The notes: a model not told the origin generated them from the sequence alone. Counted from the first letter of the stretch, positions 44,302-61,492 are shown. The stretch is DNA of 64,000 nt from Haloplanus sp. GDY1 (GCF_023703775.1 NZ_CP098514.1:930001-994000); one strand, 5' to 3'. Numbers and translations: made by a program.

Positions 44302-44361
44302 ACGCCTGGCAAAGAAAGGATTGAGGTAAAGGCTTATCTCAAACACGTTCGTTTGACCCGC
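44302..44361. promoter_or_regulatory. divergent wtpA / tfx promoter region
   Basis: Sixty bp separate the two starts. AT-rich AAAGAAAGGATTGAGGTAAAG and GCTTATCTCAAAC contain TATA-like elements for both directions. Tfx proteins bind promoters of molybdenum-related genes, so this gap is the likely Tfx operator; that is inference from family knowledge. Confidence 0.5.
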
Positions 44362-44790: not shown

Positions 44791-44969
44791 AGGCGCCTCT
44801 CGATGGTCCGGAGGTCCTCCTCGATGGTCCGGACGTAGCGACCGGCGACGAGGACCCCTGGCGTGGCCGAGCAGGAGCGCTCGACCACGTCGACGGGGGG
44901 AGTTCCCGGGGAGTCGGAGCGCGCACACCTGGTGAACGCGCGGCGTGCACTCGCCGGGTCCTTGCACTC
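44787..44969 (-). pseudogene. possible C-terminal remnant of a thioredoxin-fold protein
   Basis: A frame open from 44969 to a stop at 44787, with an in-frame stop just upstream and no plausible start, reads ...DPASARRAFTRCARS, then VVERSCSATPGVLVAGRYVR and TIEEDLRTIERRL. The cis-Pro-like SATPGVLVAGRYV segment resembles the last strands of DsbA/thioredoxin-like proteins. It overlaps the tfx stop convergently. It may be decayed or spurious. Confidence 0.3.
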
Positions 44970-45041
44970 TCAAGCGAAGGATTCTCTCCTCGCGGCTCAC
45001 TAACGCACCGAGAGGAGCGTGTTCGATGGAGGTCGATAGCC

Positions 45042-46397
45042 ATGAGTGAGACGCTCGGACTGAAAGAAGCCGTCTCGATGGCACTCGGGGGCATGATCGG
45101 TGGCGGCATCTACGCCGTCCTCGGCGTGGTGGCGGGGATAACGATGTCCGCCATCTGGGTCGCGTTCTTGCTCGCCGGTGCGGTCGCCATGTGTGCGGGC
45201 TACTCGTACAACACGCTCAACAGCCTCACGGACAACCGGGGCGGATCCGTGACGTTCGTCCAGTGTTATCTCGGAAACGCCACCGCGGCCGGGATCGTCG
45301 GCTGGACGCTCCTGTTCGGGTACATCGGCTCGATGGCGATGTACGCGTTCGCTTTCGGGGAGTTCACGGTCGCGTTCGCCGTCGTCCCGAAAAGCCTCGG
45401 GGGCTTCCCGGCCCGGCCGCTCATCTCGGTCTCCGCGGTGGCCGCGTTCGTCGGTCTGAACCTGCTCGGAGCCCGGACGACCGGCGCCGCGGAGAACGTG
45501 CTCGTCGCGCTGAAGGTCGGCATCCTCGTCGCGTTCGGTATCCTCGGGCTCGTGTATGCGTTCGGCGTCAGCGGTGCCTCCTTCGAATACGGCGTCGGCC
45601 GGCTCGGCGGGTTCGAACCGGTCATGGCGGCCGCTATCTCGTTCGTCGCCTTCCAGGGGTGGCAGCTCCTGTTTTACGACCAAGAGAGCGTCGAGGACCC
45701 CGTCGAAACCATCCGGAAGGCGGTGTACGTCTCCATCCCGGTCGCCGTCGCCATCTACGTCCTCGCGGGGATGGTGACGGTGAACCTCGTCCCGCAGGCG
45801 CTCGAGTCTCACCCACACGTCGCTCTGAAGGACGCCGCCTCGATGGTGATGCAGCCGTACGGTCTGGCACGCGCCGGGGCGGTCGTGCTCGCCCTGTCGG
45901 CGCTGTTCTCGACGGGGAGTGCGATCAACGCGACCCTGTTCTCGTCGGCGCACTTCGCCAAGGGCATGCTCAGTGACGACCTGCTCCCCGATCAGATCGG
46001 GGACGCGGCCGCCGACGGCATCCCCGAACGAACGGTTCTGGTCCTCGGCGCGATCACCGCGGCGTTCACGTGGTACGGGAGTCTCGGTGCCATCACCTCG
46101 TTCGCGTCGTTGTCGTTCATCTTGGTCTTCGGTGCGATGAGCTATCTCGCGTTCCGCCGGCGTGGCCACGACGAGGTGAACGCCGTCGTTCCCGCGGTCG
46201 GAACCGTCGGCGCTCTGGCGTTCTTTCCGCTGATGCTGTACAACCTCTACGATCGCGAGCCAAACACGTTCTACATGGTGATCGGTATCGCCGCCGTCGT
46301 GCTCGCCGTCGAACTCCTCTACTTCGAGCGCGACCTCATCCAGGAGGAGGTCGTGGAGTTCGAGTCAGGGATCGGACCCGTTCGTGAGGACGACTGA
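45042..46397 (+). CDS. APC-family amino acid permease
   Basis: A 451-residue transporter with about twelve membrane segments. MALGGMIGGGIYAVLG is the substrate-binding unwound helix 1 (GxGIGxGI type). AFQGWQLLFYDQESVEDPVE in the sixth helix region and FSTGSAINATLFSSAHFAKG in the eighth are APC features. The tail EERDLIQEEVVEFE-like segment (about 430-451) is soluble and acidic. Substrate unknown. Start ATG 45042. It is monocistronic. Confidence 0.87.
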   Translation: MSETLGLKEAVSMALGGMIGGGIYAVLGVVAGITMSAIWVAFLLAGAVAMCAGYSYNTLNSLTDNRGGSVTFVQCYLGNATAAGIVGWTLLFGYIGSMAMYAFAFGEFTVAFAVVPKSLGGFPARPLISVSAVAAFVGLNLLGARTTGAAENVLVALKVGILVAFGILGLVYAFGVSGASFEYGVGRLGGFEPVMAAAISFVAFQGWQLLFYDQESVEDPVETIRKAVYVSIPVAVAIYVLAGMVTVNLVPQALESHPHVALKDAASMVMQPYGLARAGAVVLALSALFSTGSAINATLFSSAHFAKGMLSDDLLPDQIGDAAADGIPERTVLVLGAITAAFTWYGSLGAITSFASLSFILVFGAMSYLAFRRRGHDEVNAVVPAVGTVGALAFFPLMLYNLYDREPNTFYMVIGIAAVVLAVELLYFERDLIQEEVVEFESGIGPVREDD

Positions 46398-46862
46398 CCC
46401 CGCCGACCGCGAACGGCACAGTCACGGTCGGGAACGCAGCCGTCGGGCAGCAACACGGCGGGAACCACCCCGGCCACACGTCGCTACCCGCTTCCCTCCG
46501 CCCGGTGGGCAAGGCGTCCCGCGTATCGTGAACGGCGGTACGCACCCGTCGCTGTGTCGGACACGCGACCCCGGCGACTCGTAGCGGGAGAGTGGACCTG
46601 TGTTTCACCGGCATCGAGACGGTCACTGACGACCGCCTCCCTGTCTGTGACGGTGTCGGAAATCGTCGCGACTGGAATCCCGTCCGTCGAGTGTCTCAAC
46701 TGCAGACTGGCGATACGGACGCGTATCAACGCCGTGTTCGATCTCCTCGCGAACGACGGGTACCTACGGTTCCCGGAGAGGTCGACGACGACCCACAGCT
46801 GATCGATGTGGGCGAAATCCGAGGGGACACGACGCTCGGGGTCGCCGGAATATCGTCACCTG
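46398..46862. other. 465 bp with no convincing gene
   Basis: Short frames on both strands, for example one around 46554-46799 containing RINAVFDLLANDGYLRFPER, show no consistent codon pattern, start or family match. With the frameshifted gene beyond it, this looks like decayed coding DNA. A UPF0175 antitoxin usually has a PIN-domain partner near it, but none could be assembled here. Confidence 0.4.
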
Positions 46863-47155
46863 TCACTTCGCGGGCGGTTCCACGTCGTCCGAGTCCGCAT
46901 CAGCGAATTCGAGTTCGCGTGCTGTCCCTACCTCGTAAGCTGCGTCGTCTTCGTCGACGAGTCGGCGGCGGAGTTCGACGCCGCGCTCACGGAGGACGTC
47001 ACGCATCGTCCAGCGGTCGACGTCAGCGAGTCTCACAGCAGTGTGATCCGCTGGCGTTCGTAGCGGACGACCACAGCCGCGGTACGTTCGTTCTCGAGTT
47101 CCCCGCCGAGGGAAAGATCGGCGGGAAGCTGTACCCCGACCCCGTCTTCGAGCAC
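46863..47155 (-). pseudogene. UPF0175-like antitoxin, frameshifted
   Basis: Two frames join into one protein. The first, from GTG 47155 to TGA 47033, reads VQLPADLSLGGELENERTAA then VVVRYERQRITLL. The second, from about 47036 to TGA 46863, reads VRLADVDRWTMRDVLRERGV, ELRRRL. UPF0175 proteins have the contiguous order Y-x-x-x-x-(I/L)-(S/T)-L-x-KA-x-LA-x-V-(S/D)-RW. A short deletion therefore removed the E-K-A region and shifted the frame. Without an intact partner the locus is presumably dead. Confidence 0.6.
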
Positions 47156-47236
47156 TCCAGCGGCCCCCAGGTCACGATGTCCCCGGCCGCGTCGCGGTGA
47201 CCGGCCGCGGCGCCGCCGCCCGCCGTCGGCGTCGGT

Positions 47237-48631
47237 TCAGGCGGCCGGGAGCGCCCACCGCCACGCCGACCTGAGGGCGACGACGCCGAACGGGCCGCCG
47301 AACCCGGCCGCGACCGCCGCGACGGAGGGGGCGTAGTAGGCGACGCCCGCCACGGCGGCGACGCCACAGGCTCCGGCCGCGGCCGCCGCCCCGGCCACGC
47401 GTCGGTCGAACGGGCCGAACGCCGTCGTCTCGACGGGGAGTTCGAACGCCTCGACGGCCCGGACGTACTCCCGGAGGTGCGCGACGCTGCGGTCGTACTC
47501 CCCCGCGGACGGCGTGAGCGAGAACGTCCGAGTGTCGCAGGCGCGGTCGACGAGCTCTCCCTCGCACAGCTCTGCGTCCCGGAGGTCGTCGACGGGGGTC
47601 GCCCACTGGACCGCCCCGGTGAGGTCGTCGTACGCGACCACCGCGTCGTCGCGGCGCTGGTACGCCAGCGTGCCGTGGGTGAGAGCGTACTCGACGGCCT
47701 TCAGCCCGCCGAGGCCGGCCGGCAGGAGGCCGAAACAGATCACCGTGGCGGCGACCGCCCCCGCCGACCCGCCGGTGAGCCCGACCCACGCGAGGAGGTA
47801 CGCCGGGCCGCCGCCGATCGCGGACGTCGCGCCCCGCCAGAGCGCGGCGGCGCGGACGGCGCGCCGGTCCGGACGGATCTCGGCCGTCGGTGCCGCGTCC
47901 GGAGCCGCCACTGGCGGGAGCGTCCCCGCCGCCTCGTCGGGGTCGGACGACTGCCCGCCGCGGTAGCCCCGCCACTCCGCGAGTAGCTTCACCGCGACGA
48001 ACGCGACCAGCGCGCCGGTCGGACCACCGGCGGCCGCGAACCAGAGCACCACCACGGCTACCCCGGCCTCGTTCTTCGCGCTTCCGATCACGTCCCGGGG
48101 GGTGCTCGTCTCGTGGCGCCGCTTCCGGAAGTACTCGCGGTTGATGACGCCGACGTGTGAGACGATCAGGGTGACGGCGCTCGCCGCCACAATCGGATCG
48201 GCGAGCGTCGCCGGCACGTCGATGAACCGGCTCAGTACGAAGAGGAACATCCCGACGAGCGCCACGGCAGCCCCGAACGCTCGCAAGACGAACGGGACGT
48301 TCCGGGGGTAGATCGGCGGGAGCGGGTCGACGACCGTGACGTTCCCGCGCCGGCGGTTGAGGTCGCTCGGTCCGGCGGAGACCCCGCCCCACTCGTCGGG
48401 CTTGAGCGGGTTACCCTCCTGTGGGCGCTCCAGTTCGTCGTAGTTCGGCGGACGGCGCGCGAACAGCGCCTTCACTCCGGCGAACGGGACGGCGACGACC
48501 AGTTCCATCGCGTAGACGACCGCGAACGTCTGTGCGCTCCACCCGAGGTGGAACACGCCGACCAGCGGGACGACGTTCGCCGCGACTGTCGCCAGAAACA
48601 CGGCAGGCGAATCGTTCGACGGTGACGCCAT
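47237..48631 (-). CDS. DUF6498-type membrane protein
   Basis: A 464-residue membrane protein, start ATG 48631. AANVVPLVGVFHLGWSAQTF followed by YAMELVVAVPFAGVKALFAR is the DUF6498 N-terminus. About eight hydrophobic segments occur in total. A soluble segment (about 330-410, YQRRDDAVVAYDDLTGAVQW ... REYVRAVEAFE) precedes two last helices (near 420-455). Function unknown. It is the last core-composition gene before the AT-rich island. Confidence 0.7.
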   Translation of the reverse strand: MASPSNDSPAVFLATVAANVVPLVGVFHLGWSAQTFAVVYAMELVVAVPFAGVKALFARRPPNYDELERPQEGNPLKPDEWGGVSAGPSDLNRRRGNVTVVDPLPPIYPRNVPFVLRAFGAAVALVGMFLFVLSRFIDVPATLADPIVAASAVTLIVSHVGVINREYFRKRRHETSTPRDVIGSAKNEAGVAVVVLWFAAAGGPTGALVAFVAVKLLAEWRGYRGGQSSDPDEAAGTLPPVAAPDAAPTAEIRPDRRAVRAAALWRGATSAIGGGPAYLLAWVGLTGGSAGAVAATVICFGLLPAGLGGLKAVEYALTHGTLAYQRRDDAVVAYDDLTGAVQWATPVDDLRDAELCEGELVDRACDTRTFSLTPSAGEYDRSVAHLREYVRAVEAFELPVETTAFGPFDRRVAGAAAAAGACGVAAVAGVAYYAPSVAAVAAGFGGPFGVVALRSAWRWALPAA

Positions 48632-48689
48632 CGATTCACCGTTCGATGACGGCGAATAAAAGATGTCGGTGTGGGATCGACCGTCCGTC

Positions 48690-48816
48690 GCTCCGGCGAC
48701 CGCTCGACCGTGCCGCGGTCCTTGCCGTACTCGACGATGCCGACCTCGGCCACCTTCGGGAGGCGGTGTTGCCGGAGCGACGTGTGAATAGAACACGAAT
48801 CGACGCCGTCTCGGAT
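48690..48816 (-). pseudogene. DUF7344 regulator fragment
   Basis: One frame reads IRDGVDSCSIHTSLRQHRLP, KVAEVGIVEYGKDRGTVERS. This matches the SVYTSLHQTHLPKLHEAGVV, EYDRE segment of the regulator at 8361. There is no start codon or N-terminal recognition part, and downstream the frame runs into the DUF6498 gene in another frame. It is a truncated remnant exactly at the composition boundary, perhaps cut by arrival of the foreign island. Confidence 0.55.
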
Positions 48817-49011
48817 GAAAATAGCCGATCCTCCGAAACTGTTGGAACTACAGCCCGGGCAGTAGTTGCGAACGACAAAATCTGTGCATTAGCACTTCAT
48901 TCCTAACTCCCAGTTATTCGTCTCTCCCACATCTGGACAACCAGGCCTCTCCCAAGATGCGTAGACAGCCCACCAGTTCTGCAGATACCTTTTGCGGAGC
49001 AAAATAACTAA
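48817..49011. promoter_or_regulatory. left boundary and promoter of the AT-rich island
   Basis: Base composition drops here from about 68% to below 50% G+C. AAAATAACTAAG at 48999-49010 and GTTATAG near 49033 are TATA-like and could drive the methyltransferase gene. No tRNA, integrase or obvious attachment repeat is at this edge. Confidence 0.4.
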
Positions 49012-50973
49012 GTGCAGGTCTGCTGTACTACCGTTATAGTGACAACACCCAGCGGTGATTTATCTCCCACTGAGGTACGTATCTTATCTGCCTTACGTAA
49101 TCAAAAAGAGATAGATGGGCCAGGGTGGGGGCTCGGTAACCCTCTCTACTTTCGACAGACCACAGACCTCGAAAAGGGGGAGGTCGAGTACGCATTGCAG
49201 AAACTCGTTGAGAAGGGGTATATCGCACGGGTCAACCGGGGCCTGTATTGCATCAATACAGACGAAAATGCCGTATTTGAGCTTAATAGACCTACCCCTG
49301 ATACTGGAGTCCAGCCACAGGATTTCAAGTCATCCGGCCATGAACCGACCCAAGTATACACTCCCGCGCGAATCGCACGGTTCCTCACCGATTGGGCCGT
49401 AAGGCAGGGGAGAACATCTGTCTTGGAGCCGACTGTGGGGAGCGGGAACATTGCGAAGCAAATCTGCCGTCGGAAATTCGATTTGGGTGCAAATCCAGAG
49501 ACAGTTGAGACAACGGTATTCGGGCGGGAAGTCGACGAAGATGCAGTCAATAAACTAAAAGAGAGGATCCACAGGGAGTTCGAAATCTCGTTGCCGGGAA
49601 TTAGTGCGGGGGATATTTTCGCATACGACGGGCCGATGGTCGAAGCGATCGTCGGCAATCCACCGTACGCTGGGGCGAGCAATTTTTCGCTACCGGATAG
49701 TGTGAAAACTCGATTCACGGAAAAGTACGGATTCAATGGCAATACGGATCTCTACTGCTATGTGACGGCACATGTCACACAGTATCTGGAATCTGGAGGA
49801 CGCCTTGCTGTCGTACTGTCAAACAGTTGGCTCAGGAAGCGGTATGGGACTGAGTTCAAACAGTTCCTTTTCAGCGAATACGATATTCGAGCCATCATTG
49901 GGTTCGAGCACACGACCTTCGACGCGGGGACAAATCCGGTATGTCTTCTTGCAGAGAGAAGTGAGGAATCGAGCGGAGACAGTCAGGAGATTGAATTCAT
50001 CCAATTACGAGATGAAGCAGAGCTCGTAGGTGCCGAGACCATTGATGAACTCCGCAAACAGGCAATGCTGCCCTCCGTAGAGAGTCCCGTCAATCCTGAC
50101 GATAACTTCGACGAGTTGTTGCGAGCTCCAGAGTTGATTGAGTACATCAGGAACGACTCCTTATTCACTGAGCTCGAGACCGTCGCCAATGTGCGAATTG
50201 GACTGCAAACGCTGGCGAAGGAGTTCTATACATTTGATCCGGAGAAAGAATCATCTTCCTCTCCCTCACTTGCTGAAAAGTACAAACAGCCATTTGCACA
50301 CTCACCAAGTAATTTCGAATCGCCACGAATCACTGGCGACAATGCAGACCGGAAACTGCTTGATATTGATGAAACCGATGTCGCCAATCAAAATAGTGCA
50401 GCTGAATACGTAGAATGGGGAGAAAACCGTGAGGTCGGTCAACGGAATACAGACGAGACATTCACTGGTTACAACGAAAAACCTCGTATCAAGGGAGCCA
50501 ACCGTGACCCTTGGTACGATTTGAGCGATGAGAAGACCAAGTGTACTGGACCGGTTCTACTTCCTCGACGAATCTATAAGGCATATACTGCTTACTGGAA
50601 TCAGGATCAAATCGTCGCGAATGAGAATTTCTTGATTGTCACACCGAATGATGCGTCAACGACTGAGAGTCTACTCGCATTCTTAAACTCCACACTCGGT
50701 GAAGTATGTGTTCGGCTAAGTGGCCAGGTCTATGGCGGGGGTGTATGCGAGTTAAGCGTGACAGGTGCTAAATCGATTGCGTGCCCAGAATTCGATCATC
50801 TAAACAGTGACGCCCACGAGTTATTGTCAAAATCGTTCAACACCTTTCTCGATACTCAAAACCGGGAGCAACTTGATCAGACGGTCTACGAAACTCTCGG
50901 ACTCCCAGACTCAGTCAGATCTCTGATTGAAGATACTGCAGCCAAGTCGCTTCGTGAAGTTGCCGTAAAGTGA
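49012..50973 (+). CDS. N6-adenine DNA methyltransferase with winged-helix N-terminus
   Basis: A 653-residue methylase, first gene of the foreign operon. Residues 17-82 (LSPTEVRILSALRNQKEIDG ... YALQKLVEKGYIARVNRGLY) are a winged helix. The SAM-binding part has VYTPARIARFLTDWAV (motif X), VLEPTVGSGNIAKQI (motif I, 137-151) and the catalytic motif IV VGNPPYAGASNF (NPPY 216-219). The remaining 400 residues resemble the target-recognition region of Eco57I-type enzymes. No nuclease motif is seen, so it is probably a modification-only enzyme, like DrmMI of class 1 DISARM. Start GTG 49012 or GTG 49039 (TTPSGDL); not resolved. Confidence 0.85.
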   Translation: MQVCCTTVIVTTPSGDLSPTEVRILSALRNQKEIDGPGWGLGNPLYFRQTTDLEKGEVEYALQKLVEKGYIARVNRGLYCINTDENAVFELNRPTPDTGVQPQDFKSSGHEPTQVYTPARIARFLTDWAVRQGRTSVLEPTVGSGNIAKQICRRKFDLGANPETVETTVFGREVDEDAVNKLKERIHREFEISLPGISAGDIFAYDGPMVEAIVGNPPYAGASNFSLPDSVKTRFTEKYGFNGNTDLYCYVTAHVTQYLESGGRLAVVLSNSWLRKRYGTEFKQFLFSEYDIRAIIGFEHTTFDAGTNPVCLLAERSEESSGDSQEIEFIQLRDEAELVGAETIDELRKQAMLPSVESPVNPDDNFDELLRAPELIEYIRNDSLFTELETVANVRIGLQTLAKEFYTFDPEKESSSSPSLAEKYKQPFAHSPSNFESPRITGDNADRKLLDIDETDVANQNSAAEYVEWGENREVGQRNTDETFTGYNEKPRIKGANRDPWYDLSDEKTKCTGPVLLPRRIYKAYTAYWNQDQIVANENFLIVTPNDASTTESLLAFLNSTLGEVCVRLSGQVYGGGVCELSVTGAKSIACPEFDHLNSDAHELLSKSFNTFLDTQNREQLDQTVYETLGLPDSVRSLIEDTAAKSLREVAVK

Positions 50974-51018
50974 AGGCATGCACAGTTATATTTGCAAGTG
51001 CTGTGGGTGGCGAACGTA

Positions 51019-52803
51019 ATGAGGGTCCGAGAGCTCCCCAAATATCGCGATTGGCTGTCAGCCTTATTTTTGGGGTTCGCTCTTGTAGCAGGAGTAGTCG
51101 GTAGTCTAATTGCTAATATCTATGGAGCCACGTCCACATCATCACTAAAGTCGCTCGCGACCGCCCTCTTAACCGGAAAGACAGCGATTTTTGCAGTTGC
51201 GTTTACGGTGACACTGATTGGTGTCGAGCTCAAATCCTCTGAACTCTCCTCACGAGTCTCCTGGATTTTTACGCGCGTCTGGATTTTTCGTCGGACGTTT
51301 CAGGTCTTCACGCTAGCCCTTCTGCTTGATATAGTATGTCTCTTGGCCGCAAGTTCGATGACCCCGTGGCAGCGGACATCGGCGGCTGCCGTTATCTCGA
51401 TGGCAAGTGCTGTGACGTTGTTAATGATTTACTTCTATCTGATTGAGGCAATTGAGAAACTAACTCCTAGTGGGGTGATAGACATATTCTTAGAGCTCCT
51501 GACGCCGCGTACATACATCTCAGAAGTCGCTGAGCGTGACGGACGAGTTGTAAGTGGGCATCCACTTGACGGGTTGTTCGATGTCGTCGTTGAGTTGAAC
51601 GAAAGTGATGAGGACAAATTGGCGGAATTGAGCCTCGAGAAATATTTCGAGATCGTCGGTGAGGTGATGGAGTACAGTCTCTATGTTCCATCAGATGATC
51701 TAAGACTGCAACAGTTCCTTGTGCCGCATATTAATCACTCTGGATTCTTTTTTCTCGACAACGAGGCGCAGTTTGGTGCTGGTCAGCCCACGATTGTGGT
51801 TCCTGAACAACTCCAGTTCTATGAGGTCTTAACGGTCCGCTATAACGATGTCGGAGCGGATTTATTTAGGCCGGTGTACGAGTCTCATCTCTCTGAACTC
51901 CTCACCGAACTCCCGCAAGAAAAATATGAAAATTTCTATGATGAGATGGATGTTTTAATGGAAACCGCCACTGAGAACCGCTCAAAGCTGCTCGTAGAAG
52001 GGCTCTTCGAAGTATATTGGATGCTGCATGACGATACAGTCTCTTCCTTTGCCGCTCGATACGAGATTGAATCCCGTATCATAAGCGCAATTCAGTCTTG
52101 TGTCATGCATAGAGGATTAGTCGTGGCCGGGAATCAACTTCGCTTACTGGCCGATAGCATCTCTTCAGACAGGTTCTGCGGTGAGGATTTGTTTGCTCTT
52201 ATTGAATTGTATACCACCAAATCTCCCAACATCCTATCTTCAGGACTGTCTTGGCATACCGGAGAGGCCGAACTACTGCGGCACCGGATTAGAAATCCAG
52301 AACGTCATACTGACGTGCCACCGGACGCTGCGTTTATCATTGCTTACAACAATGCAACCGCCAGAATAATACACACCTACTACGTCGGGGTGAAAGGAGA
52401 CTCAGGAATCCCCGTCAATATGCTGGTTGAATATCTAAAGTCGAATATTAAGGCGGCGAACGAGTCCGCCCTCCAACCTGAAGTGGAGTTCTTAATTGAG
52501 CAGTTTGTTCACACGGTCTGTCTGTTCGCAGCTCAGACGACAGTGGATATCACTCCCGAGGATGAACTACTCTCGTTGATTGACGAGGAAGCGCAGTTCG
52601 AACAAATCATCAACCGAGAGGTCGGGAAATTGAGCCGCGCCATCAGGTCGGAGGGTCTTTCTGGATCGGCCTCTCCACCAGAATTACATATCGCTATTCC
52701 GGAGGAGGATATTGACAGAGCCGCATTTCGAAAGGTCATTCGGAATCTCCGGTCGGAGCTCACCAAGCATGACCAACAGGCAGAGATAGGTAGCAAAAAA
52801 TGA
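51019..52803 (+). CDS. membrane-anchored protein of unknown function in defence-like operon
   Basis: A 594-residue protein; ATG 51019 is preferred over TTG 50992. Four hydrophobic segments lie in the first 150 residues (WLSALFLGFALVAGVVGSLI, TAIFAVAFTVTLIGVEL, VFTLALLLDIVCLLAASSM, AAVISMASAVTLLMIYFYLI). The remaining 440 residues are soluble, mainly helical and acidic, with blocks such as LDGLFDVVVELNESDEDKLA, INHSGFFFLDNEAQFGAGQP and HLSELLTELPQEKYENFYDE. No known domain is recognised. It lies 45 nt after the methyltransferase and overlaps the helicase by 4 nt (ATGA), so it belongs to the system. Confidence 0.7.
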   Translation: MRVRELPKYRDWLSALFLGFALVAGVVGSLIANIYGATSTSSLKSLATALLTGKTAIFAVAFTVTLIGVELKSSELSSRVSWIFTRVWIFRRTFQVFTLALLLDIVCLLAASSMTPWQRTSAAAVISMASAVTLLMIYFYLIEAIEKLTPSGVIDIFLELLTPRTYISEVAERDGRVVSGHPLDGLFDVVVELNESDEDKLAELSLEKYFEIVGEVMEYSLYVPSDDLRLQQFLVPHINHSGFFFLDNEAQFGAGQPTIVVPEQLQFYEVLTVRYNDVGADLFRPVYESHLSELLTELPQEKYENFYDEMDVLMETATENRSKLLVEGLFEVYWMLHDDTVSSFAARYEIESRIISAIQSCVMHRGLVVAGNQLRLLADSISSDRFCGEDLFALIELYTTKSPNILSSGLSWHTGEAELLRHRIRNPERHTDVPPDAAFIIAYNNATARIIHTYYVGVKGDSGIPVNMLVEYLKSNIKAANESALQPEVEFLIEQFVHTVCLFAAQTTVDITPEDELLSLIDEEAQFEQIINREVGKLSRAIRSEGLSGSASPPELHIAIPEEDIDRAAFRKVIRNLRSELTKHDQQAEIGSKK

Positions 52804-55694
52804 TTCTGGGTGAAGCAGCTGGTAAGGGCTATCGAGACTTGATTCGCCGTGAATACGAGAAATATACTGAAGCTGGTGATCAGCAGGCACTAGGAGACGC
52901 CTCGTTACGATTGACGACTAGTGATATCGAGTCGTGTGTATCCGACGACGTCCAGGAGAAGCTCGAAGATGCTGGAAAGCTAATTGAATATGATGATGGG
53001 ACGTACCGGACCAGCCACTTCGATTTGCTTTTCCGGATTGTCAATATCCGCAACCGCGAACAGCAACCGTCGCTAGTTTCAGAACACAAAATTGAGATCG
53101 AGGAACAGTATGTTCCAGACTTTGATACACATCCAATCAAAGAGGTGTTATCAGAACTCCCGGACGAACACCGTGCCAACGTAATCTCGCAGATAGAGTC
53201 AGTTGGAATCGAGACGGTATCGAGTCACCAGCGACAGGTTATCGAATCGCTGCTTGACGAAGAAACGGAGTATCTCAGTCTGGAAGCCCCAACTGCGAGC
53301 GGCAAATCACTGTCCTTCTTGTTGCCAGCGATTCTCAAGAGCTTTTATAAGGAAGCTTCTGGGCGGAACGGAACAAACTGTTTGCTACTGTATCCGAGGA
53401 AAGCACTAGCTCGAGACCAATACTCTGACATCCTCCATTACACTGCTAGTCTGAATCGAGTGCTCTCGGAGATTGGTGCGGAGCCGATAACCGTCGGGTT
53501 AGAAGATGGTGACCGAGAGCGAGTGGAGGAATACGATCACGGACAGTCCTACAGGGGATTGGACTGCGTTCACGATGGCTGTGACGGTGTGCTGGAAGTA
53601 CAAAATCCGCAAAGCAATATTCATATCCGGTGTAGCAATCATGATTCCTGCCCCCTTGATTACAGTCACATCGTGGTCGGCAAAGAGCCCATCCGGAAAC
53701 AGCGACCGACCATTACCGTCTCCAATCTGTATATGGTCTACAGAAACCTCCTCTTGTCAGGTGGAGTTGATCGACTCCAAGATGTAGAATTCGTTGTATT
53801 AGACGAAGCGCACGTCAATACCAGCTACAAGGGCGGACATGTAAGTTATATCCTGCAGCTGCTGCAAGATGTTACCTCTCGCCGCGGAGAGAGCGCACAG
53901 ATGGTATTCTCTTCTGCTACCATGGCCCAGCCAAAAGAATTTATCGCGAATTTGGCGGCTATCGACCCCAGCGAACTCACGTACATCAATTACGAGGACG
54001 CCATTGAATCAGCGGATGTAGAGACAGAGAAGCGACTCTTGATTCACCTGTACCTCCTCCCCACTCCTCGAAGAGCAGTTGAAACCCTGAATCAAGCGAT
54101 TACTTTGATACTTGGACTGTGGTCTGAGAAGCACGGCTTCCGAGCGATCAATTTCATTGACAGTATTGGGGAGTTAAACAAGATGAAGAGTTTCGTAAAG
54201 GACACGATTCTCCACCCCGGCCGTCGTGCAGGTGCAGAAGTTATCGATCACCTCCATAGTGTTGAAGACCCCATCCCATCGAATAGCTATTCGTGGAGAC
54301 CACTCTCTCCAGATTCATATCTAACGAGCCGAGCGGCAGGTCAAGACCGGATTCAGGATTTCAGGCAACTGTTCGCAACTCACCACGGAAACCTCAAGCC
54401 GTCCACGCGATCAACTGTTGAGGATCGGTTCAACGATGGGACGTATCGATATCTGTTTTCCACGTCTACCTTGGAAGTTGGTATTGACTTGTCAGGAATC
54501 GCAGCGGTCGTCCAGTATCAACTCCCGCCGACAGGCGAAGAGGGGGTGATTCAACGGGTCGGGCGCGCGGGTCGTGACCCATCGACCCAGCGAGTTGGGC
54601 TTGGGATTCTAATGTTTTCGCCAAACCCGGCGAGCCAGATGTACATGTACGATGAGAACTTAACTCGGAAGCTTCGAGACCCCAAATTCTTGGATACGGA
54701 ACAAATTTCAAATACTCGCTCAATCAAGCTGCAACATGTTCTATCCTTAGTGATGTACTCTCGAGCACTTCGAGACAAGAAAACCTACCTGGAGGGGGAT
54801 CAACGGCTTGAGAGCGAAAAAGATGTCTTGGTCGCATTACGAAATCTTTCCGGAGATTTAGACGGAATAGACACACTGAACGACCGGATTGGACTCCTCA
54901 CCGATAAGGAGTTAGAAGACGGGGTTGAGAGGTTCCGCAACTACATCGATATGATTGTCGAAGGGCGAGAAAAAGAGGCAGACGCCAATGATACGGTTGA
55001 GCCAGATATAGTCATCTCCAGATCCCTACGAGCCTTCAACGAAACCTCGCATCTAAAGAAAGATCTTGTATCGTTACGAGCAGTACTGGAGTCGGAAAAC
55101 GAGTTTACAGATGATTTAGATAGACGGTATTCTGAATTCGTGGATACAGTTGACGAGCTGACGGACATCTTGGCCGAACTCTCAGATTCGATTCATAGGG
55201 CCTGGACCGAGCGTGATGAAAGCCTACTAACTGAATGGTACGACAGCCATTACGAGGATTTTGTCGCGGCACGAGAAGCACTCCCGGCAAAAGACGATAT
55301 CGAAGCGTTGCGGTTCCAGCACGTCCAGCCATGGATTAACGATGCCTACGGGTCACCAGCGAACTTCCATAATGAGACCGGTCATCGCATGAGCGATATC
55401 AGTGACGACTGGGGGGAAATTAGAACGAAACTCAGTGGAAACGGTCAAGAACAGAGCCCTGATGGGGTGCGGGATCTTTTAGCCGACCTAGACGATTCGT
55501 TACAGAGCCTCAAAAATATGGATTTAGAACGACTCTCCGCCTCAAAGTCTATCGACAACTTCCATCAAGCACTAGACAACCAAAACTATGGTCTCTCGAT
55601 ATTCGATGCGCTGAGTGAGATGTTACAAGGCCGCGCTCAGTTCTCACTACTCCTGGAACCCCCACGACCGAAATTCGAAATGAGGTTCGAATAA
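52800..55694 (+). CDS. superfamily-2 helicase, DrmA/MrfA-like, with Cys4 insertion
   Basis: A 964-residue DEAH-type helicase. Motif I is APTASGKSLSFLLPA (163-170 core), Ia is LLLYPRKALARDQYSD, II is VVLDEAHV (335-338) and III is FSSATM. Motif V is FSTSTLEVGIDLSGI and VI is VIQRVGRAGRD (near 580). A Cys4 insertion (C256, C261, C278, C284) lies between Ia and II, suggesting a zinc ribbon. An N-terminal domain of about 140 residues and a 350-residue helical C-terminal part flank the motor. This arrangement matches DrmA of DISARM and the MrfA/YprA group. The start overlaps the membrane protein and the stop overlaps the DUF1998 gene (TAATG). Confidence 0.85.
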   Translation: MILGEAAGKGYRDLIRREYEKYTEAGDQQALGDASLRLTTSDIESCVSDDVQEKLEDAGKLIEYDDGTYRTSHFDLLFRIVNIRNREQQPSLVSEHKIEIEEQYVPDFDTHPIKEVLSELPDEHRANVISQIESVGIETVSSHQRQVIESLLDEETEYLSLEAPTASGKSLSFLLPAILKSFYKEASGRNGTNCLLLYPRKALARDQYSDILHYTASLNRVLSEIGAEPITVGLEDGDRERVEEYDHGQSYRGLDCVHDGCDGVLEVQNPQSNIHIRCSNHDSCPLDYSHIVVGKEPIRKQRPTITVSNLYMVYRNLLLSGGVDRLQDVEFVVLDEAHVNTSYKGGHVSYILQLLQDVTSRRGESAQMVFSSATMAQPKEFIANLAAIDPSELTYINYEDAIESADVETEKRLLIHLYLLPTPRRAVETLNQAITLILGLWSEKHGFRAINFIDSIGELNKMKSFVKDTILHPGRRAGAEVIDHLHSVEDPIPSNSYSWRPLSPDSYLTSRAAGQDRIQDFRQLFATHHGNLKPSTRSTVEDRFNDGTYRYLFSTSTLEVGIDLSGIAAVVQYQLPPTGEEGVIQRVGRAGRDPSTQRVGLGILMFSPNPASQMYMYDENLTRKLRDPKFLDTEQISNTRSIKLQHVLSLVMYSRALRDKKTYLEGDQRLESEKDVLVALRNLSGDLDGIDTLNDRIGLLTDKELEDGVERFRNYIDMIVEGREKEADANDTVEPDIVISRSLRAFNETSHLKKDLVSLRAVLESENEFTDDLDRRYSEFVDTVDELTDILAELSDSIHRAWTERDESLLTEWYDSHYEDFVAAREALPAKDDIEALRFQHVQPWINDAYGSPANFHNETGHRMSDISDDWGEIRTKLSGNGQEQSPDGVRDLLADLDDSLQSLKNMDLERLSASKSIDNFHQALDNQNYGLSIFDALSEMLQGRAQFSLLLEPPRPKFEMRFE

Positions 55695-57817
55695 TGAGTG
55701 ACGATCAAACCACAGATGACCTAGATACGGCATCAGAGTCTTCAAACCGCTCAGGAATGCAGGCTTTGTACAGCTTCACGCCGTTCAGCCTGCAAAATAC
55801 TAGCCCGTACGAATTACTTTTAACTCCAGTCTCGTATCTCCGGACAGATCGGTGGCTGAAGTCGGAATACAGATCTCAGTCCGTTCGTGACTCGTACAAA
55901 GTAACGAAGGAGACGTTTGAGAAGGATGTCGTCCATCCCCATTCTCTCCGTACAAAGACGTTTCGAGAAGAGGATGATGCCTCAATCGAATTCAAGCATC
56001 ACAAATACAAGCAACGAAGTGCCTGGCAGTATCCTCCGATGTATGCCGAATTCAGCTATGAAGCACTAAATTCGGGATACAGCTGTCAGCTGGGGTGGGT
56101 CCTGACATCGTCGAACAAGCAGGAGTGTCCGATGCGTCAACACTGCCCTGACTTCACCGGCGGTAGTCGCTGTGACCACTACGAAGGACCATTCCAGTAC
56201 GAACGCTTGTTCAAGATTTATCCGGGGATAGTACGTGGCTATCAGGATCCGACCTCCGGAAACTATGATTACGTCACTAGTATACGGGGTGATGCGGAGT
56301 CGCTGGCGAAACTGAGTTTCACTACAGCCGGTCAGGTAAACGCCTACATTAACGAGATCACGTTCGATTACAAGCCGAGTTACATGTTTGGCTCCCCATC
56401 ACTCTACACACAGGAGGGGATCGGCTTCCGGATGGAGAACGTGAACGCTGTCCAGCTTTCGTTTGGAGACGAGTCGTTGCATGATATGTTACTTGATCTA
56501 TTGGAGGAAAATGAAGCACTCCGCAACTGGATCGCGCTGAAGTACCACCTCTACGTAGACTTAGATTACGTTGACACTATCAAGCCAAAGGGTGGCTTCG
56601 ACGCGTTTGAAGAGTTGCGTGACGCGGTTGAAGCTGGAATTCGTGGTGGTGAGGACGAGGAGAGGGATGAAGATACCGACCTAGACGCGCTGATTGAGGC
56701 GGTTGAGACCGTTGATTTCGAAACAGATGAGTTGGCGATGGAGTTTGCCGAGATTACGTTTATCCACACCATAGCACACGCGTTGCGTGATTGGTTGGTT
56801 AACACCTACGGGTGTGACCACGATCATATTGAGTACTATCTTGAACACCCAGAGTTAGAATTACAGGACATCCCAGCAGACAGCAAGCGCATCGTCTTCT
56901 TCGAGTCTGCGATTGGAGGATTCGGCTATCTGGATAGTCTCAAGCGAGACCTCCGTGACGAGGACTCAGAGACATCCTTTGAGTCCATTCTCGATTCGGT
57001 CCACTCATTCCTGGACGAACACCGCTCCCAAGTGCACGAGTCAAAATCCAAAGCGACCAACAAACTTGCACAATACGACACCGATGACGCGGAGCGAGTG
57101 GGAACTGGACTTGAGACACTGGAAGATATCAACATTTTCCCCCACCCGAAGGCGATTCGGCAAGGAATCCATCAGGTAAACGACTTGGGCAACCGATCCG
57201 AGCGCGAGCGTGCGCTTCTAGACGATATATTCCAGCACGTGCCGATATGTTGGGACGGATGTACGTTCTGCGTCGACGACGATGAGGACTGCTCGTTCCT
57301 TCCATTCGATCGCCCGTTCCTAATCAGTCGGGATCTGGCGTATCGCGGTACCGAATACCTGCTGGAAAAGATTCGTGAACCCGAAACGTCGGGGAAGTCC
57401 CTACCGAACGATTTCTACGGTATCCTCTACGACGCATTTCTTGAAGCAGAGAGTACGGTTATTTTGGTCGTTCCGAAAATCGATCTGCAGGTGTTGGAGG
57501 ACGTCGCCAAATTCGCTCAGGATTCAAGGGTCCAAGCCCGGTTCGTCACTACTGAGGACGCCTTTGAAACGCTGGACGAGTATGAGACAAGTCGAGTTGA
57601 AGACATCCTGGCGGACACCTCATTAGTCAGCCTATCGAAACGCAGCGGGCCTCTTGATCCGCAGATTGTGATGGATGGTATCGTGAGCATCACCGGTGAC
57701 CTTCCATTCAACTACGACCGTACAAGCGTTGACAGCTCAGATCTCACTATTCGGCATGATCATCAAGAAATTACTGAGGAGCTTGAGGGGATAGGAATCT
57801 CTGTTAACAATGACTGA
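55694..57817 (+). CDS. DrmB-like DUF1998 protein with degenerate PLD-like C-terminus
   Basis: A 707-residue partner of the helicase. A cysteine group C131, C145, C151, C160 (SYEALNSGYSCQ ... ECPMRQHCPDF) lies near the N-terminus. The DUF1998-like core is ITFIHTIAHALRDWLVNTYG ... KRIVFFESAIGGFGYLDSLK. A second zinc-type cluster CWDGCTFCVDDDEDC lies near 518-532. The last 130 residues (ESTVILVVPKIDLQVLEDVA, RFVTTEDAFETLDEY) look like a phospholipase-D fold, as in DrmC, but no HxK motif is visible. So DrmB- and DrmC-like parts may be fused here. The ATG shares one base with the helicase stop. Confidence 0.75.
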   Translation: MSDDQTTDDLDTASESSNRSGMQALYSFTPFSLQNTSPYELLLTPVSYLRTDRWLKSEYRSQSVRDSYKVTKETFEKDVVHPHSLRTKTFREEDDASIEFKHHKYKQRSAWQYPPMYAEFSYEALNSGYSCQLGWVLTSSNKQECPMRQHCPDFTGGSRCDHYEGPFQYERLFKIYPGIVRGYQDPTSGNYDYVTSIRGDAESLAKLSFTTAGQVNAYINEITFDYKPSYMFGSPSLYTQEGIGFRMENVNAVQLSFGDESLHDMLLDLLEENEALRNWIALKYHLYVDLDYVDTIKPKGGFDAFEELRDAVEAGIRGGEDEERDEDTDLDALIEAVETVDFETDELAMEFAEITFIHTIAHALRDWLVNTYGCDHDHIEYYLEHPELELQDIPADSKRIVFFESAIGGFGYLDSLKRDLRDEDSETSFESILDSVHSFLDEHRSQVHESKSKATNKLAQYDTDDAERVGTGLETLEDINIFPHPKAIRQGIHQVNDLGNRSERERALLDDIFQHVPICWDGCTFCVDDDEDCSFLPFDRPFLISRDLAYRGTEYLLEKIREPETSGKSLPNDFYGILYDAFLEAESTVILVVPKIDLQVLEDVAKFAQDSRVQARFVTTEDAFETLDEYETSRVEDILADTSLVSLSKRSGPLDPQIVMDGIVSITGDLPFNYDRTSVDSSDLTIRHDHQEITEELEGIGISVNND

Positions 57818-58314
57818 ATAACCTTTATTGCACCTGAAATTCGGGGAAATAACTCTAACATCGTCTAGAACGCGGATTTTCATTCGATCACTTATCAAAG
57901 TAGTTATTATACACACGTAGAAAACGGAAGCTGCAGGAGCCCGCAGCCGGCACAGTTGTGGTCACCTTGCGCGACTATCGTCGCTCTCCCCAACTTATCC
58001 GGCCGTAGCAGGGTGCCTGCTTACTCCACCCACGAACTCATAGCTCTGCGTGTGGACTGCGGTGAATGTTTTTAAGTCAGGATTACAAATTGGACGCTCG
58101 GAAAGGTAGGAAACTGCACTAAAAACGGAAGCGGACTGTGCATTCGCTTCTATAGTGGCCGCGATTATAGTAGTTTCCCTAGCCAGAGTGACTACTCTAC
58201 CGTGGCCCTCGGGGGGTGACAGCCTCCTGGTGTCAACCAATCAGAATCCAACCCAGCACGCTATGAAACACCAAAATTCGCCGCTGTCAGTGCCAGGCGG
58301 TGCACAGATGAACA
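57818..58314. other. 497-bp AT-rich spacer, no gene seen
   Basis: Follows the last operon gene and precedes the transposase. It holds many AT blocks and a short GCTGC/GCAGC stem near 57930-57950. No convincing frame, tRNA, or insertion-sequence terminal repeat could be paired with sequence after 59988. The octamer TGTGCATT occurs at 58137, as it does near 12510 and 48890. The left end of the insertion sequence may lie here. Confidence 0.4.
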
Positions 58315-59988
58315 ATGACAGACGACAACCAGAACGAGTGCAAGTCTCGTTCCAAGATCGAACAAGACGCGATCAACCACATCGACGATGGCGCTGACGT
58401 CATCGAACTCGTCGCCGGCCTCGATTTCAGCCCGTATCAAGATCAGGGCGACACCTACGACGAGTCTGACGATTCCTTCCCCTTCGACCCGATGGTACGG
58501 GCACTCTTCCTCAAAGACCTCATGGGGTACACGGGGGTTGAGCTCCATACTCGACTGACCGAGAATCCAGATGAGGCAGCAGCGCTCGGCTTCGACGAAG
58601 TGTCTTCCCGGACGACGCTCGACCGAACTCCAGGAAGACGGCTGAGCGATGAGTTCCGTATCCAGATCCAACACACCACTCATCGCATCCTCGAGTACGC
58701 CCACGAGCAGGACAATCCAATCGGCCTGAAATCCCTCGAGCCCGACGAGAAAGACGACGTCTCAGAGCGCACTGAGGACCGCCACATCAAAGAGAAGACC
58801 CTCGAAGTATCCGAGGAGCTTCGCGGACTATTGTACGGTGCTGTTGACCTAGACCGCCCAGAGTCCGGCAGACAGTATTCGACGAGCGGACTCCTCGGCC
58901 TGGAGAGCGTCATGAGTACCGAGGCGTGTGCGGCCGGACAAGGCAGCGAACTCTACAACAACGCCCCAAAGGGCGTGAGTGCCCCCGACGGGGAGACGCT
59001 GCTCCATTACCTTAAGCAACTGGACGTCGAGGAGGTCTGTGAGATAATCCAGGCCGGTGTCGATGTCCAGTTGAAATCCGCACGGCGGCACCTCGAGTTC
59101 ACTCGCCCCGCCGAACTCGCGATCGACATGACGTACGTCGCCTACTACAGCAACGATCGAGAAGCTCTGAACTACGGCGAAGACGACGACCAAGTCGTGG
59201 TGATGGGGGCACCCCCCTCGAAAGGCTACGATTGGTGCATGAAGTTCGCGACCGCCGCAATCGTCGGCGACAACGTCCAATTCATGCTCGCAGTCCGTCC
59301 CCACACCAAGGGCCAAGGAATCGGCGAACTGGTCCGCGAGCTCATTGCAGCAGCCAGCGAACACGTGAGCGTCCAGCGAGTGTACGCTGACGCCGAATTC
59401 TACGCCGTCGACACAATCCGAGCGCTCCAAGCCGCTCGCACTGACTTCGTGATTCGTGTGCCTGCGAACGAGCGCGTCAAGCGGTGGATTCGGCGCGCGA
59501 ATCACGACGTCTGGGTCAAGAAAAACAAAACCATCTACGGTCGCACCCCCGAGAAATCGAATGGGGCGGTACGGGCCACGCACGTGGGCGTGCCGAAGCG
59601 CACGAACCCGGAGAAGACCGTCGTGTTCGCCACCAACAGTGAGGTCGACGACGAGATAGCGCTCGACCGCCGAGAAACCAAACGCAAAATCAACCGTTAT
59701 CGGCGTCATTGGGGCCTGGAGACGGGATATCGCTGCATCACGGACTTCTTCCCGTGGACGACCTCGAAGGAGTATCAAGTCCGGTTGTTCCATTTCGGGT
59801 TCGGCATGTTGGTCTACAACATGTGGCGGCTCGTCGACTTCCTCGTCCAACTGGACCTTGACTCTGAGCAGCGCAGTAAACCGCGACTGAAAGCAAAGCG
59901 ATTCCAGAACCTCGTCGCCCGAATCCTCAGCATGTACGGCTACCCACTCACGCCCGGTCGGGTTCGCCCAGCGGCGAGTCACAACTAA
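58315..59988 (+). CDS. DDE transposase of a haloarchaeal insertion sequence (IS4-like clade)
   Basis: A 557-residue transposase. The catalytic triad is read from LAIDMTYVAYY (D271), YADAEFYAVDTIRAL (D359) and YRRHWGLETGYRCITDFFPW (E469 in a Y-x-x-R-W-x-x-E-x-x-Y-R-type signature). The N-terminal 200 residues are acidic and helical and probably bind the ends. The gene is complete, with start ATG 58315, and its G+C lies between the island and the core. A CCGAAC-TATC-GTTCGG hairpin at 60038-60053 may be its terminator. The family name could not be fixed and the terminal repeats were not found. Confidence 0.8.
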   Translation: MTDDNQNECKSRSKIEQDAINHIDDGADVIELVAGLDFSPYQDQGDTYDESDDSFPFDPMVRALFLKDLMGYTGVELHTRLTENPDEAAALGFDEVSSRTTLDRTPGRRLSDEFRIQIQHTTHRILEYAHEQDNPIGLKSLEPDEKDDVSERTEDRHIKEKTLEVSEELRGLLYGAVDLDRPESGRQYSTSGLLGLESVMSTEACAAGQGSELYNNAPKGVSAPDGETLLHYLKQLDVEEVCEIIQAGVDVQLKSARRHLEFTRPAELAIDMTYVAYYSNDREALNYGEDDDQVVVMGAPPSKGYDWCMKFATAAIVGDNVQFMLAVRPHTKGQGIGELVRELIAAASEHVSVQRVYADAEFYAVDTIRALQAARTDFVIRVPANERVKRWIRRANHDVWVKKNKTIYGRTPEKSNGAVRATHVGVPKRTNPEKTVVFATNSEVDDEIALDRRETKRKINRYRRHWGLETGYRCITDFFPWTTSKEYQVRLFHFGFGMLVYNMWRLVDFLVQLDLDSEQRSKPRLKAKRFQNLVARILSMYGYPLTPGRVRPAASHN

Positions 59989-60229
59989 ACACAGATCCCC
60001 GCAATTCGTCCGCTCTCGCGGAAAAATTCGTTCTACACCGAACTATCGTTCGGCAGGCCGGCATGAGATCGTCATTGTAGCGCTTTCAAGCTCAAATCCC
60101 GGCCAGTTTTCAGCTACTCCCATGCACATTCGAAACCACTGCCCGGAGATTGTATATAGCGATATGAAGTTTATGTGTCGGCTAGGCGGTGCCGAGCGGT
60201 TTATACTCGGCTCGGTCGAACGACGGGGT

Positions 60230-60925
60230 ATGTGCGGGCGGTACACCCTGTTCACGCCGGCGGAAGAACTGGCGGGTCGCTTCGGAACCGCCGTTCCGGA
60301 CCTCGAACCACGGTACAACTGCGCGCCGGGGCAGGACCTCCCGGTCGTGACGGGGGAGGACCCGACGCGAATGCGGCGCCAGCGGTGGGGGTTGATCCCG
60401 TCGTGGGCCGACGAGGCGTCGACGGACCTCATCAACGCCCGCGCGGAGACGCTGACCGAGAAGCCGAGTTTCGCGGACGCCTTCGAGCGACGGCGGTGTC
60501 TCGTCCCGGCCGACGGGTTCTACGAGTGGGTGGATCGCTCGTCGGGGAAGCGACCGTACAGGGTCGCCTTCGAGGACGACCGCCCGTTCGCGATGGCGGG
60601 GATCCGGTCGCGCTGGGAGCCGCCATCCCGGCAGACCGGCCTCGGGGAGTTCGGAGACGGCGAGGTGGCCGGCGACCCCGAGCCGGTGGAGTCGTTCGCC
60701 GTCGTGACGACGGAACCCAACGACGTCGTTTCCGACCTCCACCACCGCATGGCGGTGATCCTCGATCCGGACGCGGAGTCGACGTGGCTTCACGGCTCCG
60801 TCGAGGAGGCCGCCGACCTGCTGGAGCCCCACCCCGCCGAGGAGATGACGGCCTACCCGGTCTCGACGCGCGTGAACGATCCGCAAACCGACACGGCCGA
60901 GCTGATCGAGCGCGCGGCGGAGTGA
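60230..60925 (+). CDS. SRAP/HMCES-type abasic-site DNA-protein crosslink peptidase
   Basis: A 231-residue SOS-response-associated peptidase. MCGRYTLF begins the protein, so Cys2 becomes the N-terminal catalytic nucleophile that crosslinks abasic sites in single-stranded DNA. YNCAPGQDLPVV, MRRQRWGLIPSWADE, INARAETLTEKPSFADAF, RRCLVPADGFYEWV (active-site Glu) and DVVSDLHHRMAVIL (catalytic His) follow the family order. The start is fixed by the Cys requirement and by TATA-like TTTATACTC about 26 nt upstream. Confidence 0.93.
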   Translation: MCGRYTLFTPAEELAGRFGTAVPDLEPRYNCAPGQDLPVVTGEDPTRMRRQRWGLIPSWADEASTDLINARAETLTEKPSFADAFERRRCLVPADGFYEWVDRSSGKRPYRVAFEDDRPFAMAGIRSRWEPPSRQTGLGEFGDGEVAGDPEPVESFAVVTTEPNDVVSDLHHRMAVILDPDAESTWLHGSVEEAADLLEPHPAEEMTAYPVSTRVNDPQTDTAELIERAAE

Positions 60926-61117: not shown

Positions 61118-61492
61118 ATGGGAGACGACGCCGTTCCGGTGAAGACGTACGTCCCGCCCTACCAGAAGGAACGCTGGGAGGAACACGCCGACAGACTCGG
61201 GATGAGTCAAAGCGAGTTCGTCCGGACGATGGTGCAGGCCGGCAGACGTGACTTCGAGGTTCCCGAGCCGCCGTCTCACGACGACGGCGGTGGAGCGGGG
61301 AGTTCGGGGCTCGAACCCCGGGTGAGAGAGGCACTCGACGCGGAGGACGGCCGTTCGTGGGACGACCTGCTCGAACGGGTGACCGAGGACGTCGAGGACC
61401 GCCTGGAGGAGACCCTCCAAGAGCTACAGGAGGAGAACGTCGTCCAGTACAGCGGGCGGGCCGGCGGCTACCGACTCGTGGAGGACTCGTGA
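61118..61492 (+). CDS. DUF5805-type protein
   Basis: A 124-residue protein. TYVPPYQKERWEEHADRLGM, SQSEFVRTMVQAGRRDFEVP is a ribbon-helix-helix-like DNA-binding region. A variable linker and WDDLLERVTEDVEDRLEETL, QELQEENVVQYSGRAGGYRL form a helical/winged C-terminus. This is the haloarchaeal DUF5805 family found upstream of a XerC-like recombinase, from memory. The stop overlaps the recombinase GTG. It may be a recombination accessory or antitoxin-like regulator. Confidence 0.75.
   Translation: MGDDAVPVKTYVPPYQKERWEEHADRLGMSQSEFVRTMVQAGRRDFEVPEPPSHDDGGGAGSSGLEPRVREALDAEDGRSWDDLLERVTEDVEDRLEETLQELQEENVVQYSGRAGGYRLVEDS

What the first reader, a model, noticed from the sequence alone, without database searches (positions are those of the whole stretch)
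49012..57817. DISARM-like defence operon with an extra membrane component and a DrmB-DrmC-like fusion
Four tightly spaced genes of clearly foreign composition encode an N6-adenine methyltransferase (NPPY), a protein with four membrane helices and a 440-residue unknown domain, a DrmA/MrfA-like DEAH helicase with a Cys4 insert, and a DUF1998 protein with a PLD-like tail. Canonical DISARM pairs DrmA, DrmB and DrmC with a methyltransferase and either DrmD or DrmE. Here separate drmC, drmD and drmE are absent and a membrane protein is translationally coupled to the helicase. This could be a new DISARM class or a related but distinct system acting at the membrane.
Basis: partly seen in the sequence, partly recalled or inferred. 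Interest (0 to 1): 0.9.

Follow-up and report, generated by a model that had tools for sequence, protein, structure and literature searches.

The report
Membrane-linked split-helicase defence operon, haloarchaeon
A salt-loving archaeon carries a foreign four-gene operon that looks like an antiviral system, pairing a DNA-marking enzyme and a two-part DNA helicase with an uncommon membrane protein; it is related to the DISARM and Dpd defence systems but does not belong to either.

Summary
Four same-strand, tightly packed genes (49012-57817; GC 0.49-0.51 against 0.65-0.73 in the flanking core genes) encode an N6-adenine methyltransferase, a 4-TM protein, a DEAH helicase and a DUF1998-type zinc protein. 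The DISARM label is only partly right. The helicase and its partner form their own deep lineage in the YprA family. They are closer in profile to Dpd (DpdJ) than to DISARM DrmA/DrmB, and the 'DrmC' tail has no HKD nuclease motif in any member. The membrane protein is a DUF2254 relative, a family that is widespread in haloarchaea and mostly found without this helicase. The core (membrane protein, helicase, DUF1998 protein) nevertheless recurs intact in both other haloarchaeal genomes that have it. There it is appended to a complete ARMADA type I operon, and the methyltransferase is downstream and unrelated in detail. In addition, a DUF2254 protein sits in the DrmC position of a separate DrmE-DrmA-DrmB operon, so the link between split YprA helicases and DUF2254 arose at least twice. 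The locus lies in an insertion site that is nearly empty in a congener. Best reading: a rare, mobile, methylation-guarded YprA defence system with a membrane output or tether. Function is untested.

The parts
49012..50973 (+). N6-adenine DNA methyltransferase, 653 aa: N-terminal winged-helix-like segment, SAM motif, NPPY, TaqI_C-like target-recognition region; no nuclease domain recognised
   Evidence: Pfam N6_Mtase 3.5e-16, Eco57I 2.5e-14; PADLOC MTase_II 142 bits
51019..52803 (+). 4-TM membrane protein, 594 aa, divergent DUF2254-like; soluble all-helical C-terminal part without conserved catalytic residues
   Evidence: family of ~580-aa haloarchaeal homologues; relatives reach DUF2254 (L047 29.1 bits, L113 60.9 bits); hydropathy
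52800..55694 (+). YprA-family DEAH helicase core (RecA1-RecA2) with Cys insert, encoded apart from its canopy domain
   Evidence: Pfam DEAD 1.7e-19, Helicase_C 1.1e-15; hhalign to DpdJ E 1e-45; tree
55694..57817 (+). OB-CON-DUF1998/MZB-type canopy partner, 707 aa, two invariant Cys4 sets; ~170-aa tail, PLD-like at most and without HKD
   Evidence: MZB 20.7 bits sub-threshold; hhalign to DpdJ C-terminal half E 3.6e-6, 87%; conserved Cys
58315..59988 (+). transposase (ISH3/IS4-like DDE), flank of the insert; not part of the system
   Evidence: Pfam DDE_Tnp_1 1e-7, NCBIfam ISH3 9.6e-35 below cut-off
60230..60925 (+). core gene SRAP that marks the right edge of the variable stretch
   Evidence: present in all 12 congeners; adjacent to the 44334-44790 HTH gene in G415

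Best explanation
The operon is a mobile antiviral system of the YprA-helicase kind. The methyltransferase marks host DNA. The helicase (52800-55694) and the DUF1998 protein (55694-57817) assemble into one split YprA helicase, as DrmA-DrmB do, which loads on unmarked or single-strand-ended incoming DNA and translocates. The DUF2254-like membrane protein, co-translated with the helicase, ties this complex to the cell membrane and carries the output, either by holding the complex where virus DNA enters or by acting on the membrane when the helicase is triggered. No intact nuclease is encoded in the operon, so DNA cutting would need a host enzyme. Shown: gene content, motifs, operon packing, foreign composition, the near-empty site in a congener, recurrence of the three-gene core, membership of the YprA family. 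Inferred: complex formation, self-marking, target, membrane role and antiviral effect.
For: Gene content and coupling. Helicase and partner homologous to YprA-family defence proteins: DpdJ E 1e-45, BRIGADE-I 5e-33, MrfA 2e-23. The same three genes sit together in G167 and G215, where they follow BrxHII-PglX-TBP-YprA/Vsr, a complete ARMADA type I operon. A DUF2254-like protein lies immediately after DrmB in an independent DrmE-DrmA-DrmB operon, G172. Genes next to DUF2254-like proteins match 177 PADLOC families against 13 for 140 control genes at the same threshold. Insertion site: 15.4 kb in the window against ~550 bp in G415; GC 0.49-0.51. ARMADA and DISARM are experimentally antiviral, and DrmA-DrmB form a complex on DNA (PMC12458937, PMC9142583).
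Against: No experiment. Only three loci in >400 haloarchaeal genomes, two of them nearly identical, so two independent instances of the core. The MTases of window and G167 share only 22% identity and the window's is closer to another MTase, so the marking step may be incidental. DUF2254 proteins mostly occur without any helicase and have no known function. The structural models were unusable.
Confidence: 0.6

Rival explanations
1. It is a divergent DISARM: DrmA and DrmB plus DrmMI-type methyltransferase, with DrmC replaced by the membrane protein and a decayed PLD tail.
For: Split helicase/DUF1998 gene pair and adenine MTase as in DISARM; DrmA profile hits of 82 and 78 bits; a real DISARM operon (G172) has a DUF2254 protein in the DrmC slot.
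Against: Tree places the trio outside a 100/100 DrmA clade, joint monophyly AU p=0.043; profile distance to DrmA far larger than to DpdJ; DrmB match weak (22%); no DrmD or DrmE; split YprA pairs also occur in Dpd and BRIGADE-like loci.
Confidence: 0.15
2. The membrane protein is a membrane-disrupting effector: sensing of foreign DNA by the helicase complex triggers it and the cell stops growing or dies (abortive defence).
For: No intact nuclease in the operon; DUF2254 protein occupies the nuclease slot in one DISARM operon.
Against: ARMADA, the neighbouring system in G167/G215, acts without killing cells (PMC12458937); related DUF2254 proteins are solo genes in ~10% of haloarchaeal genomes, which argues against strong intrinsic toxicity; no pore-like motif seen.
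Confidence: 0.25
3. A DNA-repair or plasmid/gene-transfer control module (MrfA-like) acquired horizontally, not a defence system.
For: YprA relatives include the MrfA repair helicases; MrfA is a significant profile match (2e-23).
Against: No MrfB exonuclease; methyltransferase and membrane protein present; foreign, sporadic, island-borne; neighbours ARMADA in two genomes.
Confidence: 0.1

Closest known systems
Dpd system (DpdJ, with DpdK)
   Same: Helicase core is closest in profile (DpdJ E 1e-45 over 552 columns); Zn insert in RecA1; split DpdJ exists in Deinococcus (1027 + 736 aa + PLD)
   Different: No 7-deazapurine modification genes at the locus (TGT genes only at C1:1.816 Mb); N6-MTase and membrane protein instead; no DpdD-H, no DpdK; the Cys4 of DUF1998, which canonical Dpd has lost, is kept
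DISARM (classes 1 and 2)
   Same: Helicase and DUF1998 partner in separate adjacent genes; adenine MTase; in G172 a DrmE-DrmA-DrmB operon also carries a DUF2254 protein
   Different: Not in the DrmA clade; weak DrmB similarity; no DrmC, DrmD or DrmE; motif VI is QRVGRAGR
ARMADA type I
   Same: YprA helicase + adenine MTase; the module is physically appended to an ARMADA I operon in G167 and G215
   Different: ARMADA's YprA is one 1763-aa protein with Vsr tail (DruE profiles 409 bits); the window has no BrxHII helicase and no ARMADA gene
BRIGADE (haloarchaea)
   Same: Haloarchaeal, Dpd-branch helicase; shared FIDSI motif in RecA2; some loci also split (G233, G121, Halobaculum)
   Different: BRIGADE has base-hypermodification genes and two YprA helicases; none here
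DUF2254 membrane proteins (PF10011)
   Same: N-terminal TM region with the family's conserved stretch; G167 copy passes the Pfam cut-off
   Different: Window copy is far below cut-off (10.6 bits); long helical C-terminal part; coupled to a helicase

Membership tests
DISARM | DrmA-family helicase | tested here: not met
   PADLOC DrmA at most 82 bits, in short stretches, against 350-2943 bits for the real haloarchaeal DrmA listed; outside the DrmA clade; AU p=0.043 for joint monophyly
DISARM | DrmB (DUF1998) as separate adjacent gene | tested here: inconclusive
   Separate adjacent DUF1998-type gene present, but hhalign to 37 DrmB only 22%; no PADLOC DrmB hit
DISARM | PLD nuclease DrmC with HKD | tested here: not met
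   No separate gene; tail lacks HxKx4D in 3/3 homologues, while all 32 haloarchaeal DrmC candidates have it; DrmC is non-essential in published DISARM (PMC9142583)
DISARM | DrmD (class 1) or DrmE (class 2) | tested here: not met
   No such gene among the operon's four proteins or the right-hand flanking genes scanned
DISARM | DNA methyltransferase | tested here: met
   N6_Mtase 3.5e-16; not a DrmMI-specific match
Dpd | DpdJ-branch helicase | tested here: inconclusive
   Best profile match DpdJ, but trio is outside the Dpd clade (97.8/99) in the tree
Dpd | 7-deazapurine DNA modification genes | tested here: not met
   TGT-family genes only at C1:1.816-1.819 Mb, ~0.8 Mb away
ARMADA | BrxHII-like helicase + PglX MTase + YprA with Vsr tail | tested here: not met
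   Absent among the window's operon and scanned flanking genes; present beside the homologous module in G167/G215
YprA helicase family (defence branch) | RecA1/RecA2 core with DUF1998/MZB zinc partner | tested here: met
   Motifs, MZB sub-threshold hit plus invariant Cys4, hhalign to DpdJ, BRIGADE and MrfA
Antiviral defence system | protects cells against virus | not testable with these tools
   needs virus challenge

The most novel reading that the evidence does not exclude
A separate, unnamed class of YprA defence systems whose core is membrane protein + split helicase + DUF1998 protein, in which DNA sensing by the helicase is coupled to the membrane through a DUF2254 protein; the same coupling evolved again in a DISARM operon, making DUF2254 a general membrane output of helicase-based immunity in haloarchaea.
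Probability: 0.35. Interest if true: 0.8.

Novelty: new variant of a known kind. Interest (0 to 1): 0.58.

Why it matters
YprA-helicase systems (DISARM, Dpd, Druantia, ARMADA) are thought to act on DNA in the cytoplasm with nucleases. A lineage without an intact nuclease but with a membrane protein made with the helicase would make the open question of how DISARM works without DrmC directly testable, and would give a first functional setting for DUF2254, a widespread membrane family of unknown function.

Tried and rejected
Single-sequence AlphaFold models of P0002 and P0004 (pLDDT 38.7 and 33.0) are unusable and were not searched. Deeper alignments from genome-search loci were not sent to the structure tool, because its rule names other sources. 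Scans for more members in viral contigs, GTDB-220 contigs and plasmids found none. DISARM and DrmD reference loci sought among plasmids gave only Dpd, BRIGADE, ARMADA and BREX; DrmA references finally came from haloarchaeal genomes. Rejected: housekeeping MrfAB repair (no MrfB, wrong clade). Rejected: MTase and module as one co-evolving unit (MTases 22% identical). The nearby tyrosine recombinase (61357-62508) is not an island integrase: it is core synteny with SRAP in six congeners. No convincing terminal inverted repeats around the transposase. Two literature searches found no paper describing DUF2254 in defence.

Full report
WHAT IS THERE. The window is haloarchaeal chromosome (G000:C1:930001-994000; class-level searches). 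Four ORFs on the + strand, 49012-50973, 51019-52803, 52800-55694 and 55694-57817, have a 45-bp gap and then overlaps of 4 and 1 bp. Their GC is 0.487-0.507 while the flanking core genes have 0.65-0.73. Protein 1 is an N6-adenine methyltransferase with NPPY. Protein 2 has four TM segments and a long helical soluble part (the secondary structure comes from a low-confidence model). Protein 3 has the DEAH-helicase motifs and a Cys-containing insert between RecA1 motifs. Protein 4 has a sub-threshold MZB/DUF1998 match and two Cys4 sets that are invariant in three homologues.

RECURRENCE. In 391 haloarchaeal genomes, full-length relatives of protein 4 occur in only two others, G167 and G215, both of another family (34-36% identity). 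The same two genomes hold the only full-length relatives of the helicase (37%). A search of 125 genomes of that family and 12 of the window's genus added none, nor did plasmids, viral contigs or GTDB-220 contigs. In both, the order is membrane protein - helicase - DUF1998 protein - N6-MTase. Upstream on the same strand lie BrxHII-like helicase, PglX-like MTase, a TBP (annotated in G167) and a 1763-aa YprA with MZB domain, DruE profiles at 409 bits and a Vsr-like tail read by eye. This is a complete ARMADA type I operon in the archaeal order described in PMC12458937. G167 and G215 are close to each other, so the core is seen in two independent lineages. The MTases of the window and of G167 share only 22% identity, and each has a better match to a third MTase (L113) than to the other, so the MTase is an exchangeable partner.

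THE HELICASE IS NOT DrmA. Haloarchaeal DrmA is found in 52 of 391 genomes. I retrieved 40 of these loci, most with DrmB and DrmC and some with large PglX-type MTases, and used them as reference. In a tree of the helicase cores the window protein and its two relatives form a 100/100 clade outside DrmA (100/100) and outside Dpd (97.8/99). Monophyly with DrmA has AU p=0.043, with Dpd/BRIGADE-I 0.46, with ARMADA/BRIGADE-type YprA 0.12 (5000 resamplings, below the program's advice). So the exclusion from DISARM is modest and the deeper position is open. Profile-profile E-values rank DpdJ 1e-45, BRIGADE-I 5e-33, other split haloarchaeal pairs 7e-30, MrfA 2e-23, ARMADA 3e-18, DrmA 1e-11. For the DUF1998 partner: DpdJ C-terminal half 87% probability, split pairs 76%, DrmB 22%. 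Splitting alone does not define DISARM: split pairs also occur in a Deinococcus Dpd locus and in haloarchaeal loci next to queuosine-type genes.

NO INTACT NUCLEASE. All 32 haloarchaeal DrmC candidates have HxKx4D; none of the three protein-4 homologues does. The tail aligns to DrmC with 33% probability. At best it is a decayed PLD domain.

THE MEMBRANE PROTEIN. Protein 2 belongs to a family of ~570-720-aa proteins in 40 of 391 genomes; relatives match Pfam DUF2254 (25-61 bits, cut-off 28.8), while the window copy is below threshold and is the only DUF2254-like hit in its genome. 37 of the 40 genomes lack this helicase. In an independent locus, G172, a DUF2254-like protein (719 aa) follows DrmE-DrmA-DrmB directly, in the place where DrmC usually stands. 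It is the only one of 40 DISARM loci with it, and it branches near the window copy in a tree printed without support values. Other copies lie beside Mokosh-like MkoA, BREX BrxHII, PglX/type IIG MTases, EVE-McrB-like and Mrr-like genes. Neighbours of DUF2254-like genes hit 177 PADLOC families against 13 for an equal number of control genes from 18 loci in the same genomes; families overlap, so this is a direction, not a count of systems.

MOBILITY. SRAP, RHH and the tyrosine recombinase right of the operon are core synteny in six congeners. In G415 the HTH gene at 44334-44790 and SRAP are ~550 bp apart, against 15.4 kb in the window. The operon, an APC permease, a membrane protein gene and a transposase fill this variable site.

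MECHANISM. Shown: the parts, their packing, foreign origin, recurrence and family. From established knowledge: DrmA-DrmB bind DNA as one helicase and are gated by DNA structure, with methylation proposed as a further signal (PMC9142583); ARMADA protects without killing (PMC12458937). Inferred here: the two proteins form a split YprA helicase, the MTase marks self DNA, and the membrane protein tethers the complex or carries the output. I favour tether/output in general (0.6) and do not separate anchor from effector beyond odds of about 60:40.

NOVELTY. PMC12458937, the broad survey of the family, does not mention DUF2254, and the 'membrane' passages shown concern dye assays, not a component. 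Literature searches found no DUF2254 defence paper. This is a new variant of the YprA-helicase kind of defence; calling it a class needs a full family tree and an experiment.

Noticed in passing
L137 / L190 (G172:C1:2893657-2903312): DrmE-DrmA-DrmB operon in which a DUF2254-like 4-TM protein stands in the DrmC position; one of 40 DISARM loci looked at.
   Followed up: partly
L099:8635-17466 (G000:C4:84635-93466): The same genome's contig C4 (107 kb) carries a Druantia type I-like set: DruE1 profile 1567 bits (1807 aa), a weak DruD match (610 aa) and a 523-aa unknown.
   Followed up: partly
L047, L048 (G167, G215): Complete ARMADA type I operon with a TBP gene between MTase and YprA, directly followed by the module studied here: two helicase systems on one strand.
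   Followed up: partly
L049, L050, L081, L065, L095: Another split YprA pair (903-929 aa + 687-726 aa) followed by a PD-(D/E)XK nuclease protein, in several loci near queuosine/TGT-type genes and/or a 1860-aa YprA: BRIGADE-like but with a divided helicase.
   Followed up: partly
L128:2640-10341 (G107:C21): MkoA-like protein (Mokosh, 247 bits), a 583-aa unknown and a 725-aa DUF2254-like membrane protein in a row on one strand.
   Followed up: no
L114 and L122: Two convergent DUF2254-like genes side by side (574-584 and 578 aa) in two genomes.
   Followed up: no
L092:8407-14518 (Deinococcus taeanensis plasmid): Dpd operon whose DpdJ is divided into a 1027-aa helicase and a 736-aa C-terminal protein followed by a PLD protein.
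   Followed up: no
window 44790-60230: Variable stretch between an HTH gene and SRAP that is only ~550 bp in G415; G280 has a different transposase copy at the same place.
   Followed up: partly
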